From NCBI GenBank assembly GCA_945952105.1, contig CAMFGZ010000003.1, positions 248,001 through 312,000 of the forward strand: a DNA stretch of 64,000 nt, in the 5' to 3' direction. The position numbers were made by a program, and so were the translations under genes. Below are positions 3,993-11,642 of the stretch, piece after piece (within the stretch, counting starts at the first letter, position 1; each line of letters opens with the position of its first letter). The notes beneath the pieces are model-generated. The model had not been told where the DNA came from and made no database searches. It saw only the letters and a program-made list of their open reading frames with translations. The DNA is from an uncultured Rhodospirillaceae bacterium (GTDB lineage: Bacteria; Pseudomonadota; Alphaproteobacteria; Reyranellales; Reyranellaceae).

Positions 3993-4226
3993 GTGAAGAA
4001 ACTCCCCGCCCGCACGATGCACATCGCCCTGCCGCTGGCGCTGACCTTCGTGATGACCTTCCTTGTTTCCGGAATCTCGACGATCCGCGCCATCGGCTTC
4101 GAGACGGGCATGGTGCCCCGCTGGATGGAATCGTGGATGGCGTCCTGGATGGTCGCCTTTCCGATCATGCTGCTCCTGATGCCGGCGATGCGGCGCCTGC
4201 TCTCGTTCCTGATCGAGACGAAATAA
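3993..4226 (+). CDS. DUF2798 family small membrane protein
   Basis: A 77-residue protein if the GTG at 3993 is used; an ATG at 4017 would give 69 residues. Two hydrophobic segments, about IALPLALTFVMTFLVSG and WMVAFPIMLLLMPAM, are joined by GISTIRAIG...MVPRWMESW, matching the DUF2798 family of two-helix inner-membrane proteins of unknown function. It lies divergently 62 nt from the amidase and converges on dnaE2 with only 16 nt between stops, so there is no room for a separate terminator. The upstream extension of the open frame to 3900 is not conserved-looking and overlaps the amidase start, so it was left out. Confidence 0.72.
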   Translation: MKKLPARTMHIALPLALTFVMTFLVSGISTIRAIGFETGMVPRWMESWMASWMVAFPIMLLLMPAMRRLLSFLIETK

Positions 4227-4242
4227 TCTCCGCCCGCGGATT

Positions 4243-7200
4243 TCAGTGGAAGTCGCGCGAGGCGATCCTGATCTTCGGCCGGTCGAGGACGATGCGGGTC
4301 CTATCGTAGCCGGGCCTGGCGGCAACGCCCTGGCTCGACCGGTGCCGGGTGGCATTGGCCTCCGGAGTCTTCACCCGCCGGTCGGCGGAATCCGTGCGGA
4401 CGGCGTCGCCCCGTCCATGGGTCAAGTGGAACAGGTCCAGTTCGGAGATCGAATCGAGGTCGGCCGAGAGGTCCCACACTTCCTCGGCGACGAGATGGAT
4501 CACCTTGTATTCCTTTTCGCCCTCGCACTGGATGCGGCCGCGCACGCCCATGAGGCGGGCGCCCATCACGATGCGACGATAGGCTGCGAACACCTTGGGC
4601 CAGACCACGAGGTTGGCGATGCCGAATTCGTCTTCCAGGGTGACGAACACCACGCCCGAGGCCGTACCGGGCCTTTGCCGTACCAGCACGAGGCCGGCCA
4701 GGGTGAGAAGCGCGCCATTCTTCGCCGTCTTCAAGGCCTCGGTGCTGGAGAATCCATGTTTCGCGAAGGTCGCGCGCAGCAGTTCCATCGGATGCGAGCG
4801 CAGGGACAGCGAGAAGCTGGCGTAATCGTCCACCACCTGCTCGCCGAGAGTGAGCCTCGGCAGGATGACGGGAGGCTCGAGATCGCGCGCCTCCGGCTGT
4901 GTGTCGAGCAGCGGCAGCTGCCCCTCCGGAAAGCCGCGTACCGCCCACAGCACGTCGCGGCGCGTGAGGCCGAGGGAGGCGAAGGCGTCGGCCCGGGCCA
5001 GCGCCACGATCTGCCGCTTGGTGAGGCCGCTGCGCCGCCACAGGTCGGCAGGATCGCGATAGGGTTCGTCGCCGCGGCGCGCGACCAGTTGATTGGCCGC
5101 CTCCTCGGAAAGCCCCGTGACCTGGCGCAGGCCAAGGCGCAGGGCGCAGCGATTGTTCTTTCCCGGCTCCAGCGTGCAGTCCCGGTCGCTGGTGTTGATG
5201 TCGGGCGGGCGCACCTCGACACCGTGATCCTTCGCATCGCGCACGAGCTGGGCCGGGGCGTAGAAACCCATCGGCTGGGAGTTGAGCAGGGCCGCGGCGA
5301 AGACCTCGGGATAGTAATGCTTCACATAGGACGAGGCGTAGACGAGGATGGCGAAGCTCGCGGCATGGCTTTCGGGGAAGCCGTATTCGCCGAAGCCCTC
5401 GATCTGCTTGAAGCAACGCTCGGCGAAATCGCGTTCGTAGCCGTTCTCCACCATGCCTGCGATGAACGGTTCCTTGAACTTGTAGATGGTGCCGTTGTGC
5501 CGGAACGTCGCCATGGCGCGACGCAGCCTGTCGGCCTCTTCCGGCGTGAAACCGGCCCCGACGATGGCGATCTGCATCGCCTGTTCCTGGAACAGGGGAA
5601 CGCCCAGCGTGCGTTCGAGCACCGCCTTCATTTCAGGCTTGGGATAGACGACGGCGTCGCGATTCGCCCGGTTCTTCAGATAGGGATGAACCATGCCTCC
5701 CTGAATGGGGCCCGGCCGCACGATCGCCACCTCGACGACGAGATCGTAATATTCCCGGGGCTTGAGCCGCGGCAGCATGGACATCTGTGCCCGGCTCTCG
5801 ACCTGGAAGACGCCGACCGAGTCGGCCTTGCACAACATCTCGTAGACTTCCGGATCATCCGGCCGCATGTCGAGCGACAGCTTCTCTCCGAAATGTTTCT
5901 CGATGAGGGCGAAACCCTTGCGCAACGCCGTCAGCATGCCGAGCGCCAGCACATCGACTTTGTAGATGTTCAACACGTCGAGATCGTCCTTGTCCCACTC
6001 GACGACGGTGCGATCCTTCATCGCCGCGTTCTGGATCGGCACCAGTTCGTCGAGCCGGTCCTGGGTTAGCACGAAGCCGCCAACATGCTGGGAGAGGTGA
6101 CGGGGGAAGCCGCACAGGGCCGCCGAAAGTTCGAGTGCCAGCATGATGCGGGGATCCATCGGATCGAGGCCGGCCTCACGAACATGCTCGACCTTTATGC
6201 CGCTCGATCCCATGCCCCAGACCGTATCGGCCATCACGCCCACCGTGTCGGGTGAAAGCCTCAGCGTTTTGCCTACTTCTCGAATGGCGCTGCGGCTCCG
6301 GAAGGAGATCACCGTGGCCGCCAGGGCAGCCTTCGAGCGGTGCTTCTCCTCATAGATCCACTGGATGATCTCCTCGCGGCGTTCATGCTCGAAATCGACG
6401 TCGATGTCGGGTGGTTCGTCGCGGGCATTGGACAGGAAGCGCTCGAACAAGACGTCCGTCTCATCGGGATTCACCGACGTGATGCCGAGGCAATAACAGA
6501 CGGCGGAGTTGGCGGCGGAGCCGCGACCCTGGCAGAGAATGCCGCGCCTGCGCGCCTCCATGACGATTTCGTGTACCGTCAGGAAGTAGGGCGCGATCTT
6601 CTTGAGATCGATGAGCGAGAATTCCTTGCGGATCGTGTTCCTCACTTCTTCGGGAACGCCGCCAGGATAACGCCAGTCCGCTCCCTCCCAGGTGAGTCGC
6701 GTGAGCTTGTCCATGGGCGTCTCGCCGCCCTCATAGAGGACCGGATACTGGTAAGTGAGCTGCCGCAGCGAGAAGCCGCAGCGTTTCACGATCTCCTGCG
6801 TGGCCGCGATGGCATGCGGATGGCGACGGAACAGGCGCGCCATCTCGGCCGGGTCCTTGAGATGGCGCTCGGCGCTGGCGAAGCGGCGGAAACCCAGCGC
6901 CTCGACCGTGCAGCCGAGGCGGATGGCCGTCACGACGTCCTGCAGCGCCCGCCGTTCGGGCACGTGATAGTGCACGTCGTTGGTGGCGACGAGCTTCACG
7001 CCGTGCCGATGCGCAAGATCGTCGAGCAGGGCGACGCGGCGCGCATCGTCGCCGCGATAGAGCATGGAGGCGGCGAGATAGCAGCGATCCTCGAACAGTT
7101 CGGCGAGCTTCCGCAGCCGCTCGCGAAAGGCCGGTTCGTCCGGCTTGCGCGGCGGCAGTACGATCGCCAGGAGACCTTCGGCATACTCGGCGAGATCGTC

Positions 7201-7551
7201 GAAGCCGATGTCGCATTGACCCTTTTCGGTGCGCCGGTTCCCGAGGGTCAGCAGGCGGGACAGGCGCTTGTAGGCGTCGAGATCGGTCGGATAGACGAGC
7301 AGCGAATAGCCGTCCCGGGTTTCGAGACGGCTGCCGACCAGCAGCCTGATCCGGTCGTACCCGGGGTCCTTCGGCTTTTCCTCATGGCGTGATGCCGCGA
7401 AAGCCCGCACGACGCCGGCCAGCGTGTTGCGGTCGGTGACGCCGATGGCGGTGTGGCCGAGCTCGATGGCCCGTTCGACCAGCTCCTGCGGGTGCGAGCC
7501 GCCGCGCAGGAAGCTGTAGTTGGTCGTGACCTGCAGCTCGGCGTAGTCCAT
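4243..7551 (-). CDS. dnaE2: Error-prone DNA polymerase DnaE2 (ImuC), catalytic subunit of the SOS mutasome
   Basis: About 1,102 residues, the usual DnaE2 size. The N-terminal PHP domain begins MDYAELQVTTNYSFLRGGSHP and contains GVTDRNTLAGVVRA. The polymerase catalytic aspartates are in PDIDVDFEHERREEI near residues 381-387. The C-terminal part has the tandem HhH and OB-fold regions of C-family polymerases. DnaE2 does mutagenic translesion synthesis with ImuB and ImuA after DNA damage. The ATG at 7551 is preferred over an upstream in-frame Met that would overlap the PIN toxin gene; with it, only 4 nt separate the toxin stop from the dnaE2 start. It is the last gene of a five-gene minus-strand unit headed by a LexA box. 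Confidence 0.96.
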   Translation of the reverse strand: MDYAELQVTTNYSFLRGGSHPQELVERAIELGHTAIGVTDRNTLAGVVRAFAASRHEEKPKDPGYDRIRLLVGSRLETRDGYSLLVYPTDLDAYKRLSRLLTLGNRRTEKGQCDIGFDDLAEYAEGLLAIVLPPRKPDEPAFRERLRKLAELFEDRCYLAASMLYRGDDARRVALLDDLAHRHGVKLVATNDVHYHVPERRALQDVVTAIRLGCTVEALGFRRFASAERHLKDPAEMARLFRRHPHAIAATQEIVKRCGFSLRQLTYQYPVLYEGGETPMDKLTRLTWEGADWRYPGGVPEEVRNTIRKEFSLIDLKKIAPYFLTVHEIVMEARRRGILCQGRGSAANSAVCYCLGITSVNPDETDVLFERFLSNARDEPPDIDVDFEHERREEIIQWIYEEKHRSKAALAATVISFRSRSAIREVGKTLRLSPDTVGVMADTVWGMGSSGIKVEHVREAGLDPMDPRIMLALELSAALCGFPRHLSQHVGGFVLTQDRLDELVPIQNAAMKDRTVVEWDKDDLDVLNIYKVDVLALGMLTALRKGFALIEKHFGEKLSLDMRPDDPEVYEMLCKADSVGVFQVESRAQMSMLPRLKPREYYDLVVEVAIVRPGPIQGGMVHPYLKNRANRDAVVYPKPEMKAVLERTLGVPLFQEQAMQIAIVGAGFTPEEADRLRRAMATFRHNGTIYKFKEPFIAGMVENGYERDFAERCFKQIEGFGEYGFPESHAASFAILVYASSYVKHYYPEVFAAALLNSQPMGFYAPAQLVRDAKDHGVEVRPPDINTSDRDCTLEPGKNNRCALRLGLRQVTGLSEEAANQLVARRGDEPYRDPADLWRRSGLTKRQIVALARADAFASLGLTRRDVLWAVRGFPEGQLPLLDTQPEARDLEPPVILPRLTLGEQVVDDYASFSLSLRSHPMELLRATFAKHGFSSTEALKTAKNGALLTLAGLVLVRQRPGTASGVVFVTLEDEFGIANLVVWPKVFAAYRRIVMGARLMGVRGRIQCEGEKEYKVIHLVAEEVWDLSADLDSISELDLFHLTHGRGDAVRTDSADRRVKTPEANATRHRSSQGVAARPGYDRTRIVLDRPKIRIASRDFH

Positions 7552-7555
7552 GGCT

Positions 7556-7996
7556 TCAGGGATCGACGAGTTCGTGCGCCTCGGAAAGCGGCACGCCGCG
7601 CACATCGATCCCCTCGCTCTTCAAGGCCTGCAGGAACTCTTCTTCGGCACTGACCAGCGGTGCCTTCGCCGCTTCGGCGCACGCGGCGTAGAAGCATTCG
7701 TGTACCGGCCGCCTGCACCGAAGCGCGATGGCCAGCGCCCGGTTGCGCAGTTGCTGCGATTCGACGAAGGCCGAGATGAACGACGGCAACGCGATGTTGC
7801 GCACGATGGGCTCGGCCTGTTCGGCCGAGATCTCGCCGCGCGTCGTCTTCTGCCAGGCCAGCTCGGCGACGCCCGCGATCAGGATGTCGGGCGCGATCAC
7901 CTCGTGCCGGTTGGCCAGCAGGGAACGTGCCTGCGGCCGCAGCGATTCCTCGACGAACCATTTTATGGCGACGCCGGGATCGACGACGACGATCAC
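7556..7996 (-). CDS. PIN-domain toxin, VapC/FitB type, inside the mutasome operon
   Basis: A 146-residue PIN-domain protein. The first acidic residue is D6 in VVDPGVAIKWF and the second is E45 in AGVAELAWQK. The other positions usually filled by Asp carry Glu: E100 in PVHECFYAACAE, and E118/E119 in LVSAEEEF. PIN toxins are Mg2+-dependent ribonucleases that cleave tRNA or rRNA and stop growth. Its ATG overlaps the antitoxin stop by 4 nt (ATGA), the classic coupling. It lies between imuB and dnaE2 with no room for its own terminator. The Asp-to-Glu changes keep acidity but could weaken catalysis, so activity is uncertain. The family call is firm. Confidence 0.88.
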   Translation of the reverse strand: MIVVVDPGVAIKWFVEESLRPQARSLLANRHEVIAPDILIAGVAELAWQKTTRGEISAEQAEPIVRNIALPSFISAFVESQQLRNRALAIALRCRRPVHECFYAACAEAAKAPLVSAEEEFLQALKSEGIDVRGVPLSEAHELVDP

Positions 7997-8238
7997 TTGC
8001 CGCCTCCCCTGTGCGCGAGGACGGCTGGCGGTGTCATGGCGGCGATGCGGTCGGCCTCGGCCAGGGCGTCGAGCACCAGCGGCTGGCCCGACGCATAGGT
8101 CAGCAGGTCGCGCAGGTCGGCCTCGAGCGAACGCCCCTTGGCGCGGGCATGGACCTTCAGGCGGTCGATGATCGCGCCGTCGAGGCCACGGATGGTGAGC
8201 GTGGTGCCGCGCTTGTTTGTTGCTGTTGCCGTTTCCAT
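7993..8238 (-). CDS. Ribbon-helix-helix antitoxin, FitA/VapB type
   Basis: An 81-residue protein. The segment TTLTIRGLDGAIIDRLKVHAR followed by GRSLEADLRDLL is the FitA-like ribbon-helix-helix pattern; this domain binds the operator and the C-terminal tail would wrap the PIN toxin. The start at 8238 is supported by GGAGAGAAGG just upstream. The first ten residues (Thr/Ala-rich) are an extra tail before the RHH strand. It starts 13 nt after the imuB stop and its stop overlaps the toxin start, so it is read as part of the imuA-imuB-dnaE2 transcript. No palindrome or separate promoter is visible in the 13-nt junction; one inside imuB cannot be excluded. Confidence 0.85.
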   Translation of the reverse strand: METATATNKRGTTLTIRGLDGAIIDRLKVHARAKGRSLEADLRDLLTYASGQPLVLDALAEADRIAAMTPPAVLAHRGGGK

Positions 8239-8251
8239 TTCCTTCTCTCCT

Positions 8252-9901
8252 TCAGGCGCAGAAACCGTGGAGGAACCAGCGGGCCGTCGGCTGGCCGTTG
8301 GCGGCCAGCTGGTAGGGGCCGTCGCGGAACAGCCAGAAGCGGCCGCCGTCATCGTCCTCGACCCGGTAATAGTCGCGCACCGGCGGCAGGGTGGTGGCCG
8401 GTGGTCGGCTGCCGTCGGGCCGCGGCCGCCACCATTCGTCGGCGATCCGCTCCGGCCCGTCGGCGCGCACGATGCGATGCGCGTGGCGTCGCCAGCGGAA
8501 CACCGATGGCGGGTCGTCGGGCACGAAGGCGGTGACTTCCACGAGTTCGGGCCGCTGCAGCAGCCGCGTCGGCCGCGCATTCTTGAGATTCGCAATCCGG
8601 CGCCAGGCTCCCTCGCCAGCGGGCTTCGCTGAAACAGGGGCCGGGACCTGGACGCGCTCGGGGAGATGGCTGTCGCGGGTCAGGAGCCGCACGACATTCT
8701 CTGCGCCGAGGCGCAGCGCCAGCCGGTCGGCCAGATCGATCGTGCCGTCCACGCCCGAAGCGACGCCGGGCGATTCCTGGTCGGGCAGCGCATCCTGCGT
8801 ACCGCTCCACGCTTCGACCTCGGGCGCGGAGAGGATCATCAACTCGACGCCGAAACCGGGATCGAGTTGTCCGAGCCTCTCCTCGAACAGTTTCATCAGC
8901 TTCGGGTTGTCGCGGTTGGGCCGGCTGGTCCCGATCGAGGTGCGGTCCACCGAGCCGTCGACGCGGTAGAGCGCGATCTCGAGCTGGCGGGCGCCGACGC
9001 CGGCCTGTTCGAACTGCCGGCACAGGGCCGCCAGCAGGCGACTGGTCGCGGCGGCGATGTCCTCGGCTCGGCCGATCGGCTCGGCGAAGGCGAGGCGCGT
9101 GCGGAAGGCGGGCGGCAGGCGGCGCGGTTCTATCGGCTCGTCGAGCCTGCCTAGCGCCTGATCGACACGGCGCACCGGCTGGTCGCCGAAGCGGCGGACG
9201 AGCGGCCCGCGCGGCATGGGATAGAGATCGCCGATGCGGCGCAGGCCGAGCTTCAGGAAGGTTTCCAGGATCGGTGCCTCGAGGCGCAATCCCTCGACCG
9301 GCAAGGAGGCGAGGGCATCGCGCTGGCCGCGCGCGGGACAGAAGAGATCGGCCTGGCGCTCGGCAAAGCGGGCCAGCGCCCAGGCGGCGCCCGCCGTGTC
9401 GGCCATCGCGGCCCGGCACGAGAGGTCGCGGCGGGCCAGGCGTGTGACCAGATCGGCCAGCAGTGCCCGTTCGCCGCTCTCACCCTCGCCGAAGAGATGC
9501 GTGCAGCCCGTCACGTCGAGCAGCAGGCCGGCATCGCCGCCGAATCCGCCGGCACTGCAGGCCGTCTCGATTTCCGGAGCGATCGCACCGCCCGTCGGGT
9601 CGATCGCTACCCAGGGCGTATAGCGATCGCACCAGCTTGCGATCGCCTCGACCAGGCGAAGGTCGGCCTGTGGCTCCCCCGCTTCCGTGACGAGATCGGG
9701 CAGGAGCGCTCGTGCATCGGCCAGCCGCATGCGTGGCCGCAGGCCGGCGGCGCGGGCATGGGAATTCAGGGCGACGAGACGCGGGCACCCGTCGTCCCAC
9801 GCGACGGTGGCGGCGGCTCTATCCGACCAGTCTTTCTTCGAAACGCGCGCCAGCCGGTCCATGGAGAGCTTGGGGAACCACAGCGAGACAATGCGTTTCA
9901 T
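8252..9901 (-). CDS. imuB: ImuB, Y-family polymerase-like mutasome subunit
   Basis: A 549-residue ImuB. The N-terminus MKRIVSLWFPKLSMDRL is the family hallmark, followed by the Y-family palm-like region (LRPRMRLADARALLPDL) and little-finger region. The long C-terminal part ends DYYRVEDDDGGRFWLFRDGPYQL. ImuB proteins lack the catalytic acidic residues of true Y-family polymerases and act as a hub joining the beta clamp, ImuA and DnaE2. The chosen ATG 9901 begins the conserved N-terminus and lies inside the 3' end of imuA, giving an 83-nt overlap; the longer open frame to 10168 is not ImuB-like. The stop is 13 nt before the antitoxin gene. Confidence 0.94.
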   Translation of the reverse strand: MKRIVSLWFPKLSMDRLARVSKKDWSDRAAATVAWDDGCPRLVALNSHARAAGLRPRMRLADARALLPDLVTEAGEPQADLRLVEAIASWCDRYTPWVAIDPTGGAIAPEIETACSAGGFGGDAGLLLDVTGCTHLFGEGESGERALLADLVTRLARRDLSCRAAMADTAGAAWALARFAERQADLFCPARGQRDALASLPVEGLRLEAPILETFLKLGLRRIGDLYPMPRGPLVRRFGDQPVRRVDQALGRLDEPIEPRRLPPAFRTRLAFAEPIGRAEDIAAATSRLLAALCRQFEQAGVGARQLEIALYRVDGSVDRTSIGTSRPNRDNPKLMKLFEERLGQLDPGFGVELMILSAPEVEAWSGTQDALPDQESPGVASGVDGTIDLADRLALRLGAENVVRLLTRDSHLPERVQVPAPVSAKPAGEGAWRRIANLKNARPTRLLQRPELVEVTAFVPDDPPSVFRWRRHAHRIVRADGPERIADEWWRPRPDGSRPPATTLPPVRDYYRVEDDDGGRFWLFRDGPYQLAANGQPTARWFLHGFCA

Positions 9902-10658
9902 CGTTCCACTCCAGGAGCCAGGACGGGACTTCATCGACAGACGGCACGCCGAAACGGTTGCGCCGCAATTCCACGCGCCAGCGGGCAGCGCCGACATCGG
10001 TGAGGCCCGGCGTCGACGTCGAGGGAGCGGAGGCGATCCGCCAGCGCGTTGCGCACACGCTTTGTGGCGATGCGGGTTGCCCGCGCAGCAGCAGGGCGGG
10101 GACGCCGTTTTTTTCGGCGGCGAGAGACAGGCGGCGGCCGGCCGTTGGATCGACGGAGCGTGTCTCACCCAGCACGGCCGCGATGCCGGGGCAGCGCAGT
10201 CCTTCCTCCATCGCCCAGAAGAGATCCTCGTCGCGCGCCGCCGTGACCATCAGAAGCCGCGCGGGATCGAACCAGGACGAGAGCGCCGGTGCATAGGGCG
10301 CGGCATCGGCGCCCCCTGAGGCGCGACGGCACCACAGGATCGTGCCCGGCCCGAAACGTCCTAACAGATTGGCGGCGAAGCCGAGCGCCGCGCCATCGTG
10401 CGGCGCCACGCGGCCGGACGGGCCGGAACCGGCCTCGATCTCGTGCAGGGCGCCGGTCAGCAGGCCGCCTTCGGGCAGCAGCGCATCTATGGCGGGAATC
10501 CCCAAGGTCACTCCGGCGGCACGGCCGCGGCGCTGGACGCTGTTGGCCCGCTCGAGCCGCCGCACCTTCTCGCGCAGGGCGGCGGCCACTGCGGCGCTCG
10601 CATCGTTGGCGACCCTGGAAGCAGAGGAAGCAAAGACATTCGGGGAAATGACCGGCAT
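9819..10658 (-). CDS. imuA: ImuA, RecA/SulA-like mutasome accessory protein
   Basis: A 279-residue ImuA. It has an N-terminal helix with REKVRRLERA, the segment LGIPAIDALLPEGGLLTGALHEIEAG, and a RecA-like core without a clear Walker A. The C-terminal region RWRVELRRNR...SWLLEWNDETH is typical. ImuA binds RecA and ImuB and is needed for DnaE2-dependent mutagenesis. The ATG at 10658 follows GAGGGGG at a good distance. The gene is first in the cassette; a LexA box lies about 36 nt upstream of its start codon. Its 3' end overlaps imuB by 83 nt in another frame, a longer overlap than usual. Confidence 0.92.
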   Translation of the reverse strand: MPVISPNVFASSASRVANDASAAVAAALREKVRRLERANSVQRRGRAAGVTLGIPAIDALLPEGGLLTGALHEIEAGSGPSGRVAPHDGAALGFAANLLGRFGPGTILWCRRASGGADAAPYAPALSSWFDPARLLMVTAARDEDLFWAMEEGLRCPGIAAVLGETRSVDPTAGRRLSLAAEKNGVPALLLRGQPASPQSVCATRWRIASAPSTSTPGLTDVGAARWRVELRRNRFGVPSVDEVPSWLLEWNDETHCLAVVPQALHGPAGARFEERLVG

Positions 10659-10694
10659 CGCCCCCTCGCAGGCTGATATGGTTGGGGATTAAAT

Positions 10695-10709
10695 GTTCTT
10701 CTTTTGTTC
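10695..10709 (-). promoter_or_regulatory. LexA (SOS) box upstream of imuA
   Basis: On the minus strand the sequence is GAAC-N7-GAAC (spacer AAAAGAA), an exact match to the alphaproteobacterial LexA consensus. A third GAAC half-site sits at 10712-10715. A possible -35 element, TTGACG, lies immediately upstream (10716-10721, minus strand), so LexA would cover the promoter. The box is 36 nt from the imuA start and is the only candidate regulatory site for the whole imuA-imuB-antitoxin-toxin-dnaE2 unit. Confidence 0.88.
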
Positions 10710-10799
10710 TAGTTCCGTCAAATCCGGGAGTCAACGGGAGTCAGGGCTGGCATATCGAGTGCATCTGGGGGGAAGCTGCATGCCTGCCTCGGAGGCTCC

Positions 10800-11642
10800 A
10801 TGACCCTGCGCTTGTCCCTCGTCGCCCTGTGCGCCACCGCCTTTGCCGTGATGGCGGGGCCGGCCCTGGCCCGCTGCTCCAAGAACCTCGTCGAGCTGGG
10901 ACCCATCCTGCAGGGGCGCGGCGTGCAAATGGCCTCGCTCGACGGCGTGCGGATGGCGGCCGACACGGCAAGCCGCGCGATCATCACGTTCCTCGGCCAT
11001 GCCAGTTTCGAGATCGACACGCCGCAGGGCGTGCGCGCCATCACCGACTACAACGGTCTGAACGGCTTCGGCCGCAAGCCTGACATCGTGACGATGAACA
11101 ACGCGCATTCGACGCACTACACCGACACGCCCGAGGAAGGGATCACCTACGTGCTGCGCGGCTGGCCCAGCGAGGCCGGCCAGACCGAGGCGCGCCACGA
11201 CGTTGCGCTCAAGGATCTCAAGGTGGCGAACCTGCCGACCAACGCGCGCGACTGGGGTGGCGGCTCGGCGCGCATCAACGGCAATTCGATCTTCACCTTC
11301 ACTATCGGCGATCTCTGCATCGCCCATCTCGGCCACCTGCATCACCGGCTGACCAAGGACCATCTCGACGAGCTCGGCCGCATCGACGTGCTGATGGTGC
11401 CGATCGACGGCGCCTACACGGTCGGCCTGCCGGTGATGGTCGAGGTCATCCGCCAGGTGCAGCCGCGCATCGTGCTGCCGATGCACTATTGGGGGCGCGG
11501 CCAGGTCGCGCGCTTCGAGGAGCTGATGCAGGACCAGGACGCGGTCTTCATCTGGCCCGATCGCCGCACCATCGAGGTCGCGCACGACACGCTGCCCGAG
11601 AAGCTCACCGTCTACGTCGTCGGCGGGAATGGCGGCGACTGA
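10800..11642 (+). CDS. Metallo-beta-lactamase-fold hydrolase with altered metal motif, exported
   Basis: A 280-residue protein with a signal peptide (residues 1 to about 25, ending ALA). The core has GHASFEI (residues 66-72), like UlaG-type MBL-fold hydrolases. The usual HxHxDH metal motif appears as NAHSTH (N101 to H106), so the first His is Asn and the Asp is Thr. Downstream His residues in AHLGHLHH and LPMHYWG fit other metal ligands. A modified metal site or an altered activity is therefore likely, and the substrate is unknown. The start is supported by GGAGG about 6 nt upstream. Its stop overlaps the kinase gene by 14 nt. Confidence 0.78.
   Translation: MTLRLSLVALCATAFAVMAGPALARCSKNLVELGPILQGRGVQMASLDGVRMAADTASRAIITFLGHASFEIDTPQGVRAITDYNGLNGFGRKPDIVTMNNAHSTHYTDTPEEGITYVLRGWPSEAGQTEARHDVALKDLKVANLPTNARDWGGGSARINGNSIFTFTIGDLCIAHLGHLHHRLTKDHLDELGRIDVLMVPIDGAYTVGLPVMVEVIRQVQPRIVLPMHYWGRGQVARFEELMQDQDAVFIWPDRRTIEVAHDTLPEKLTVYVVGGNGGD

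What the first reader, a model, noticed from the sequence alone, without database searches (positions are those of the whole stretch)
4243..10709. Toxin-antitoxin pair nested inside the LexA-controlled imuA-imuB-dnaE2 mutagenesis cassette
Seen: imuA, imuB, RHH antitoxin, PIN toxin and dnaE2 are all on the minus strand. The junctions are an 83-nt overlap, 13 nt, a 4-nt overlap and 4 nt, and one exact LexA box precedes imuA. Known: imuAB-dnaE2 is an SOS-induced mutasome; VapBC/FitAB pairs stop growth by RNA cleavage. Inference: SOS induction would raise the toxin and the mutasome together, tying growth arrest to translesion mutagenesis, or the pair protects the cassette from loss. I know of no described system of this form.
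Basis: partly seen in the sequence, partly recalled or inferred. Interest (0 to 1): 0.82.

Follow-up and report, generated by a model that had tools for sequence, protein, structure and literature searches.

The report
Disarmed toxin pair inside mutagenesis operon
In Reyranella bacteria a toxin-antitoxin gene pair sits inside the predicted damage-induced operon for error-prone DNA copying, but the toxin's cutting site and the antitoxin's matching plug are both altered, so the pair likely no longer stops growth and would instead serve the mutagenesis operon itself.

Summary
It is no local accident. Of 37 Reyranella genomes, 25 have imuB-RHH-PIN (dnaE2 seen next in 24) and 8 have imuB directly followed by dnaE2. 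Nine genomes of eight other alphaproteobacterial families carry a PIN at the same place, one without the RHH gene. Imu-site PINs form one group on a tree, with moderate support. The PIN fold is intact, but the catalytic glutamate is glycine in 36 of 37 crown Reyranella sequences, and the antitoxin lacks the arginine tail that plugs VapC-type active sites. A lost acid together with a lost tail recurs in another family. PINs away from imu genes keep the quartet in 28 of 29. Yet PIN is under purifying selection much like imuB and dnaE2. Best reading: a captured pair, disarmed and kept as a co-expressed RHH-PIN complex that probably binds DNA and tunes the operon (role inferred). E. coli dinB-yafNO is a published precedent for the general idea.

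The parts
10695..10709 (-). LexA box GAACAAAAGAAGAAC
   Evidence: in all 34 Reyranella imuA promoters given; same motif upstream of lexA and recA
10728..10734 (-). TTGACTC, -35-like element 18 nt before the LexA box
   Evidence: sequence; near-invariant in pair-bearing and pair-less species
10738..10742 (-). GACTC, upstream copy 10 nt from the GACTC of the -35; candidate operator half-site, unproven
   Evidence: motif A.TC.CGTTGACTC in 26 of 34 pair-bearing and 2 of 9 pair-less promoters; confounded by clade
9819..10658 (-). imuA
   Evidence: NCBIfam ImuA 58 bits, below cut-off 150; synteny
8252..9901 (-). imuB (Y-family polymerase homologue); overlaps imuA by 83 nt
7993..8238 (-). RHH (FitA-like) antitoxin homologue; RHH part and the stretch taken as toxin-docking helix kept, C-terminal arginine plug lost
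7556..7996 (-). PIN (VapC/FitB-like) toxin homologue, GTG start, altered active site
7871..7873 (-). codon 42 (GGC, Gly) at the place of the catalytic Glu
7697..7699 (-). codon 100 (Glu) at the place of the third catalytic Asp
7643..7645 (-). codon 118 (Glu) at the place of the fourth catalytic Asp
4243..7551 (-). dnaE2, error-prone DNA polymerase, starts 4 nt after the PIN stop

Best explanation
An RHH-PIN pair of the FitAB/VapBC kind sits between imuB and dnaE2 behind a LexA box, its PIN lacks the catalytic glutamate and its RHH lacks the active-site plug, so it is likely no longer a growth-arrest toxin and is predicted to act, co-expressed with the mutasome, as a DNA-binding RHH-PIN complex that would tune the operon. 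Shown by sequence: position, tight junctions, LexA box, grouping of imu-site PINs on a tree, loss of a catalytic acid together with the antitoxin tail in two lineages, and purifying selection. Inferred: one SOS transcript from imuA through dnaE2; loss of RNase toxicity; survival of the RHH-PIN complex through the kept docking stretch; and its use as a local autoregulator. The likely order of events is capture of an active pair (the quartet is still intact in L102, the Reyranella PIN that branches next to the crown, and in other families), then in some lines deletion of the pair and in others disarming with retention.
For: Gene order: imuB-RHH-PIN in 25 of 37 Reyranella genomes, dnaE2 seen next in 24; next to imuB in 41 of 41 Reyranella-like loci of the genome-contig scan, dnaE2 seen in 39; L039, L100, L101 of other genera of the order; 9 genomes of 8 other families. 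PIN tree: 47 imu-site PINs on one side of a branch, 89/82, 90% of bootstrap trees. Quartet 6/42/100/118: DEDD in 28 of 29 PINs without imu genes in the held flanks and in 10 of 50 imu-site PINs; Gly42 in 36 of 37 crown sequences; DDLD in L131 and L137, by eye also L240; DEID in L039. Antitoxin tail present in 9 of 9 scored DEDD imu pairs, absent in 38 of 39 scored non-DEDD ones. Median omega for PIN 0.136, 0.074, 0.129 against imuB 0.114, 0.080, 0.107 in three clades, while former catalytic positions 100 and 118 are more variable than 86% and 64% of PIN positions. RHH/PIN overlap of 4 nt in 47 of 49 loci listed. Passages read: VapB Arg64 binds VapC Glu42 and Asp98 while aromatic residues dock beside it (PMC3384007); VapB11 Arg62 binds Asp5, Glu44, Asp116, and changing Asp5 removes toxicity (PMC6265470).
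Against: Acids remain: of 37 crown sequences 32 keep D6, 34 have D or E at 100, 33 keep D118, and 36 have an acid at 45, one helix turn from 42, so the metal site may be moved rather than dead. Gly42, Pro7 and Gly8 are themselves conserved, which fits a rebuilt pocket as well as decay; position 42 is less variable than most (38th percentile). One crown member has Asp42 (L057), and one non-imu PIN has lost an acid too (L118). RHH omega reaches 0.211 in one clade. No operator was shown: synonymous difference at the end of imuB is not clearly low; inverted repeats in pair-bearing promoters are about as common as in shuffles and rarer than in pair-less ones. The 10-nt GACTC repeat is confounded by clade and absent from L088, L093, L100, L101, where the quartet is intact. 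Only two lineages show acid and tail lost together.
Confidence: 0.5

Rival explanations
1. [quoted passage not shown]
For: Purifying selection on PIN like that of the mutasome genes; tight junctions with them; no operator found.
Against: No interaction evidence; 8 Reyranella genomes and 80 of 89 class loci with dnaE2 seen have the cassette without a detected pair.
Confidence: 0.2
2. The PIN is still a nuclease with a shifted metal site (acid at 45 for Glu42), so the pair remains an SOS-induced RNase, perhaps with a new target.
For: Acid at 45 in 36 of 37 crown sequences; 6, 100 and 118 acidic in most.
Against: Acids are broken further in L007, L020, L038, L068, L081 with open frames; the antitoxin plug is gone, which a live RNase would be expected to need.
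Confidence: 0.15
3. One reading: a live toxin-antitoxin pair that couples growth arrest to SOS mutagenesis.
For: Position behind a LexA box; nine imu-site pairs elsewhere keep both quartet and plug, and for those this reading stays open.
Against: In this genome E42G, D100E, D118E and no plug.
Confidence: 0.08
4. The pair is a cassette-stabilising addiction module, or a passenger kept only because PIN translation is coupled to dnaE2.
For: PIN-dnaE2 spacing of 3-4 nt in 31 of 35 crown loci listed.
Against: Amino-acid-level purifying selection speaks against a mere spacer; clean absence in 8 genomes and the altered toxin speak against addiction.
Confidence: 0.07

Closest known systems
E. coli dinB-yafNO operon (PMC2814082, passages read)
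   Same: TA pair transcribed from the DNA-damage-induced promoter of a translesion polymerase gene.
   Different: yafNO lies after dinB, encodes an active RelE-type mRNA interferase and also has its own autoregulated promoter; here the pair lies in the middle of the operon, is of PIN type, shows no promoter of its own and has an altered active site.
FitAB / VapBC type II toxin-antitoxin systems
   Different: Catalytic Glu and antitoxin Arg plug absent in crown Reyranella; embedded in a DNA damage operon.
imuA-imuB-dnaE2 mutasome cassette
   Same: Gene content, order, LexA box.
   Different: Two extra genes between imuB and dnaE2. A 2026 survey with DnaE2 neighbourhood analysis (PMC12926913, passages read) has no word beginning with 'toxin' in its main text; its supplements were not read.

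Membership tests
Type II TA, VapBC/FitAB | Antitoxin-toxin bicistron with RHH and PIN domains | tested here: met
   PF22513 43.9 bits, PF01850 25.9 bits, both over cut-off; overlap 4 nt
Type II TA, VapBC/FitAB | Intact acidic quartet of the PIN nuclease | tested here: not met
   window D6, G42, E100, E118
Type II TA, VapBC/FitAB | Antitoxin C-terminal Arg that plugs the active site | tested here: not met
   tail motif absent in the window, present in 9 of 9 scored DEDD imu pairs and 18 of 19 scored non-imu pairs
Type II TA, VapBC/FitAB | Toxicity neutralised by the antitoxin | not testable with these tools
   needs expression assays
Type II TA, VapBC/FitAB | Autoregulation through an operator | tested here: inconclusive
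   no clear signal at imuB end; a candidate repeat at the -35
imuA-imuB-dnaE2 cassette | DnaE2 error-prone polymerase | tested here: met
   NF004225 1370 bits, cut-off 939
imuA-imuB-dnaE2 cassette | ImuA and ImuB upstream | tested here: inconclusive
   weak HMM matches, ImuA and IMS below cut-off, but conserved order
SOS (LexA) regulon | LexA box in the promoter | tested here: met
SOS (LexA) regulon | Induction by DNA damage of the whole transcript | not testable with these tools
   no expression data

The most novel reading that the evidence does not exclude
A toxin-antitoxin pair captured once by the imuAB-dnaE2 operon of alphaproteobacteria has been turned, in at least two lineages independently, from an RNase toxin into a non-toxic RHH-PIN component of the SOS mutagenesis machinery: pseudo-toxin and plug-less antitoxin lost their active-site halves together and now set the dose or DNA contact of the mutasome.
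Probability: 0.3. Interest if true: 0.85.

Novelty: new variant of a known kind. Interest (0 to 1): 0.68.

Why it matters
It gives a concrete case, with intact and disarmed relatives at the same site, of how a toxin-antitoxin pair can lose its toxin function yet stay under selection. It also names a possible missing component or regulator of the imuAB-dnaE2 mutasome, a source of damage-induced mutations in many bacteria. Because the same operon exists with an intact pair, a disarmed pair and no pair within one genus, the role can be tested by comparison and by gene removal.

Tried and rejected
Operator at the 3' end of imuB: in pair-bearing species the synonymous difference over the last 20 codons is at the 34th percentile of windows and over the last 30 at the 20th; in pair-less species at the 77th and 16th; no clear signal. 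Inverted-repeat operator in the imuA promoter: 1.08 per pair-bearing promoter, 2.89 per pair-less one, 0.93 in shuffles, no position shared by more than 2. Pattern promoters and terminators: 0 promoter-like sites in 4200-10800 and none of the three terminator-like sites on the operon's strand; the scan also misses the LexA promoter itself, so it is weak evidence. Spread beyond the class: in 398 genomes of the phylum, at E up to 1e-20, only the window and G103 (same class) had the arrangement among the matches. Simple vertical descent across the class: on a dnaE2 tree the pair needs 10 changes, at least 6 by starred branches, so ancestral presence with many losses, or transfer between imu operons, stays open. 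Grouping of imu-site PINs is moderate (89/82, not starred). Two searches around other pair-bearing genomes: 3 of 10 genomes in the order of G234 (one genus) and 1 of 2 in the order of G278 have it at the imu site. Other ORFs between imuB and dnaE2 in the class (named by eye) were not pursued.

Literature: no paper on this arrangement in searches (open-access library only). Of the 14 papers listed I opened passages of one (PMC8072749), of the two one (PMC12926913); the rest were seen as listings. Background passages also came from PMC4803016 and PMC4105405.

Limits of counts: 12 of 79 rows had no antitoxin scored (L109 has none, L067 and ten non-imu rows were missed) and one row (L036) was scored on a wrong frame; tails of L036 and L067 as seen also lack the motif. 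Crown rows are 37 loci (34 distinct proteins); L008 (cut by the contig end) and many loci of L048-L088, largely the same species, were left out. In one search, 95 imuB loci were taken (170 of 385 genomes had imuB; the match list was cut), 6 without dnaE2 in the stretch held; the pair was sought there with the window's own proteins, so distant pairs may be missed. Non-imu PINs were judged on flanks of 1.5 to 6 kb. Most dnaE2 rows cover only its N-terminal part.
Full report
What is there. DnaE2 is firm (NF004225, 1370 bits); PIN and RHH pass Pfam cut-offs; ImuA and ImuB match their models only weakly and are named by order as well. One GAACN7GAAC box stands before imuA. Chance alone gives 1.36 per window, but the box stands in all 34 Reyranella imuA promoters given, and lexA and recA of this genome carry the same motif upstream. 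LexA control is thus well supported by sequence; induction itself was not observed.

How conserved it is. The window is judged to be from Reyranella by the titles of its nearest records. Of 37 genomes of the genus, 25 show imuB-RHH-PIN (dnaE2 next in 24; in L008 the contig ends inside PIN), 8 show imuB directly followed by dnaE2, one contig ends 387 nt after imuB with no RHH match, and three gave no imuB match. In a wider look, 43 of 65 genomes of the genus have a PIN at least 59% identical to the window's (place not checked for each). A scan of one genome for each of 84,980 species with the PIN alignment gave 52 loci: 41 Reyranella-like ones (59-90% identity) all lie next to imuB, dnaE2 being visible in 39; two more (L090, L093) are at the same place in other bacteria; nine have no imu gene in the stretch held. 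In the same order but other genera, L039, L100 and L101 also have it. In an even sample of 385 alphaproteobacterial genomes, 58 have a PIN match at 1e-12; of the 30 loci returned 11 are at an imu site, three of them Reyranella, and G104 was added through the imuB survey. That makes nine non-Reyranella genomes of eight families, eight of them with RHH. In the survey that started from imuB, dnaE2 was seen downstream in 89 of 95 loci and the pair in 9 of these, three of them Reyranella. In 398 genomes of the phylum no case outside the class was seen.

One group of PINs. On a tree of 76 PINs the 47 imu-site ones lie on one side of a branch (89/82; 90% of bootstrap trees; shuffled labels need about 23 changes). 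On the dnaE2 tree the label is scattered (10 changes). A single capture followed by many losses, or by transfer from one imu operon to another, are both possible.

The toxin is changed. AlphaFold2 gives a confident PIN fold (mean pLDDT 96) closest to PAE0151 and to VapC toxins. The profile alignment to PAE0151 places the catalytic Glu where the window has Gly42. Over 79 aligned PINs the four acids read DEDD in 28 of 29 PINs without imu genes in the held flanks, and in 10 of 50 imu-site PINs (L100-L102, L107-L113). In 37 crown Reyranella sequences position 42 is Gly in 36 and Asp in 1; position 6 is Asp 32, Glu 5; 100 is Asp 22, Glu 12, Ala 2, Gly 1; 118 is Asp 33, Asn 2, Glu 1, Gly 1; Ser8 of the DAS motif is Gly in 33. 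L131 and L137 of another family read DDLD, and L240 looks the same by eye; L039 reads DEID. By the PIN tree these are three separate departures, all at imu sites, with one odd row elsewhere (L118, DEGD).

The antitoxin changed with it. In solved VapBC complexes a stretch of the antitoxin docks beside the toxin and a C-terminal Arg enters the active site, binding Glu42 and Asp98 in S. flexneri (PMC3384007, passages) and Asp5, Glu44 and Asp116 in VapBC11 (PMC6265470, passages). The corresponding tail (LLREDR and the like) ends the RHH protein in all nine scored DEDD imu pairs and is missing from 38 of 39 scored non-DEDD ones; the exception is L039. The stretch before it (EADRIAAMTP in Reyranella) and the RHH strand are kept. 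Loss of the plug together with a change of its binding partner is what one expects if the nuclease no longer needs restraint. It happened in two lineages, crown Reyranella and the family of L131, so the number of independent events is small.

The pair is still selected. Median dN/dS in three clades of 8, 4 and 6 species is 0.07-0.14 for PIN and 0.01-0.21 for RHH, against 0.08-0.11 for imuB and 0.14-0.15 for the dnaE2 part held. The 37 crown PIN frames are open at normal length or longer. RHH and PIN overlap by 4 nt in 47 of 49 listed loci (L108 and L109 differ), and in L017, L018, L019 and L021 RHH even starts inside the imuB stop. The pair thus has no room for a promoter of its own between genes, although one inside imuB is not excluded.

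What it does. The nuclease part has gone or been rebuilt; the DNA-binding and docking parts remain. The most economical function is a DNA-binding RHH-PIN complex acting on its own operon; a mutasome subunit is the main rival, a nuclease with a shifted metal site the next. The search for an operator gave only a lead: in crown species the -35 TTGACTC is extended towards a GACTC repeat 10 nt apart (26 of 34 pair-bearing promoters, 2 of 9 pair-less). Species are not independent here; the two pair-less exceptions (L031, L032) fall in one small dnaE2 group with the intact-pair species L102, and the four pair-bearing promoters with intact quartet lack it. I give the whole chain 0.5.

Known or new. 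A TA pair driven by the SOS promoter of a translesion polymerase gene is known: dinB-yafNO (PMC2814082, passages). The imu location, its spread over the class, and the paired loss of active site and plug were not found in print in the searches; the 2026 survey with DnaE2 neighbourhoods (PMC12926913, passages) does not use the word toxin in its main text. I therefore rate it a new variant of a known kind.

Noticed in passing
window 10749-10762, +: GG-N10-GC, a sigma-54-like element (consensus recalled) before the divergent gene at 10800-11642 (metallo-beta-lactamase-fold-like by eye); a similar GCA...TGCCAG block is seen by eye in many pair-bearing and pair-less Reyranella promoters.
   Followed up: partly
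window 10728-10742, -: Two GANTC sites (the CcrM methylation motif, recalled) 10 nt apart at the -35 of imuA; the -35 copy is near-invariant in the genus.
   Followed up: partly
L109 (G385) 1000-1413: PIN with intact DEDD directly after imuB and no RHH gene between: a toxin homologue without its antitoxin at the imu site.
   Followed up: no
L093 5400-6900 (L108 the same place in G103): Two RHH-like ORFs and a PIN ORF with a C-terminal extension of about 130 residues between imuB and dnaE2.
   Followed up: no
L045 (G016): A second, distant imuA-imuB-dnaE2 cassette in a Reyranella genome that lacks the pair.
   Followed up: no
L044, L141, L143, L147, L167, L193, L197, L200: Other ORFs between imuB and dnaE2 in the class (by eye GIY-YIG, glyoxalase-like, uracil-DNA-glycosylase-like, antisense MerR), so this junction seems to take up genes repeatedly.
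   Followed up: no
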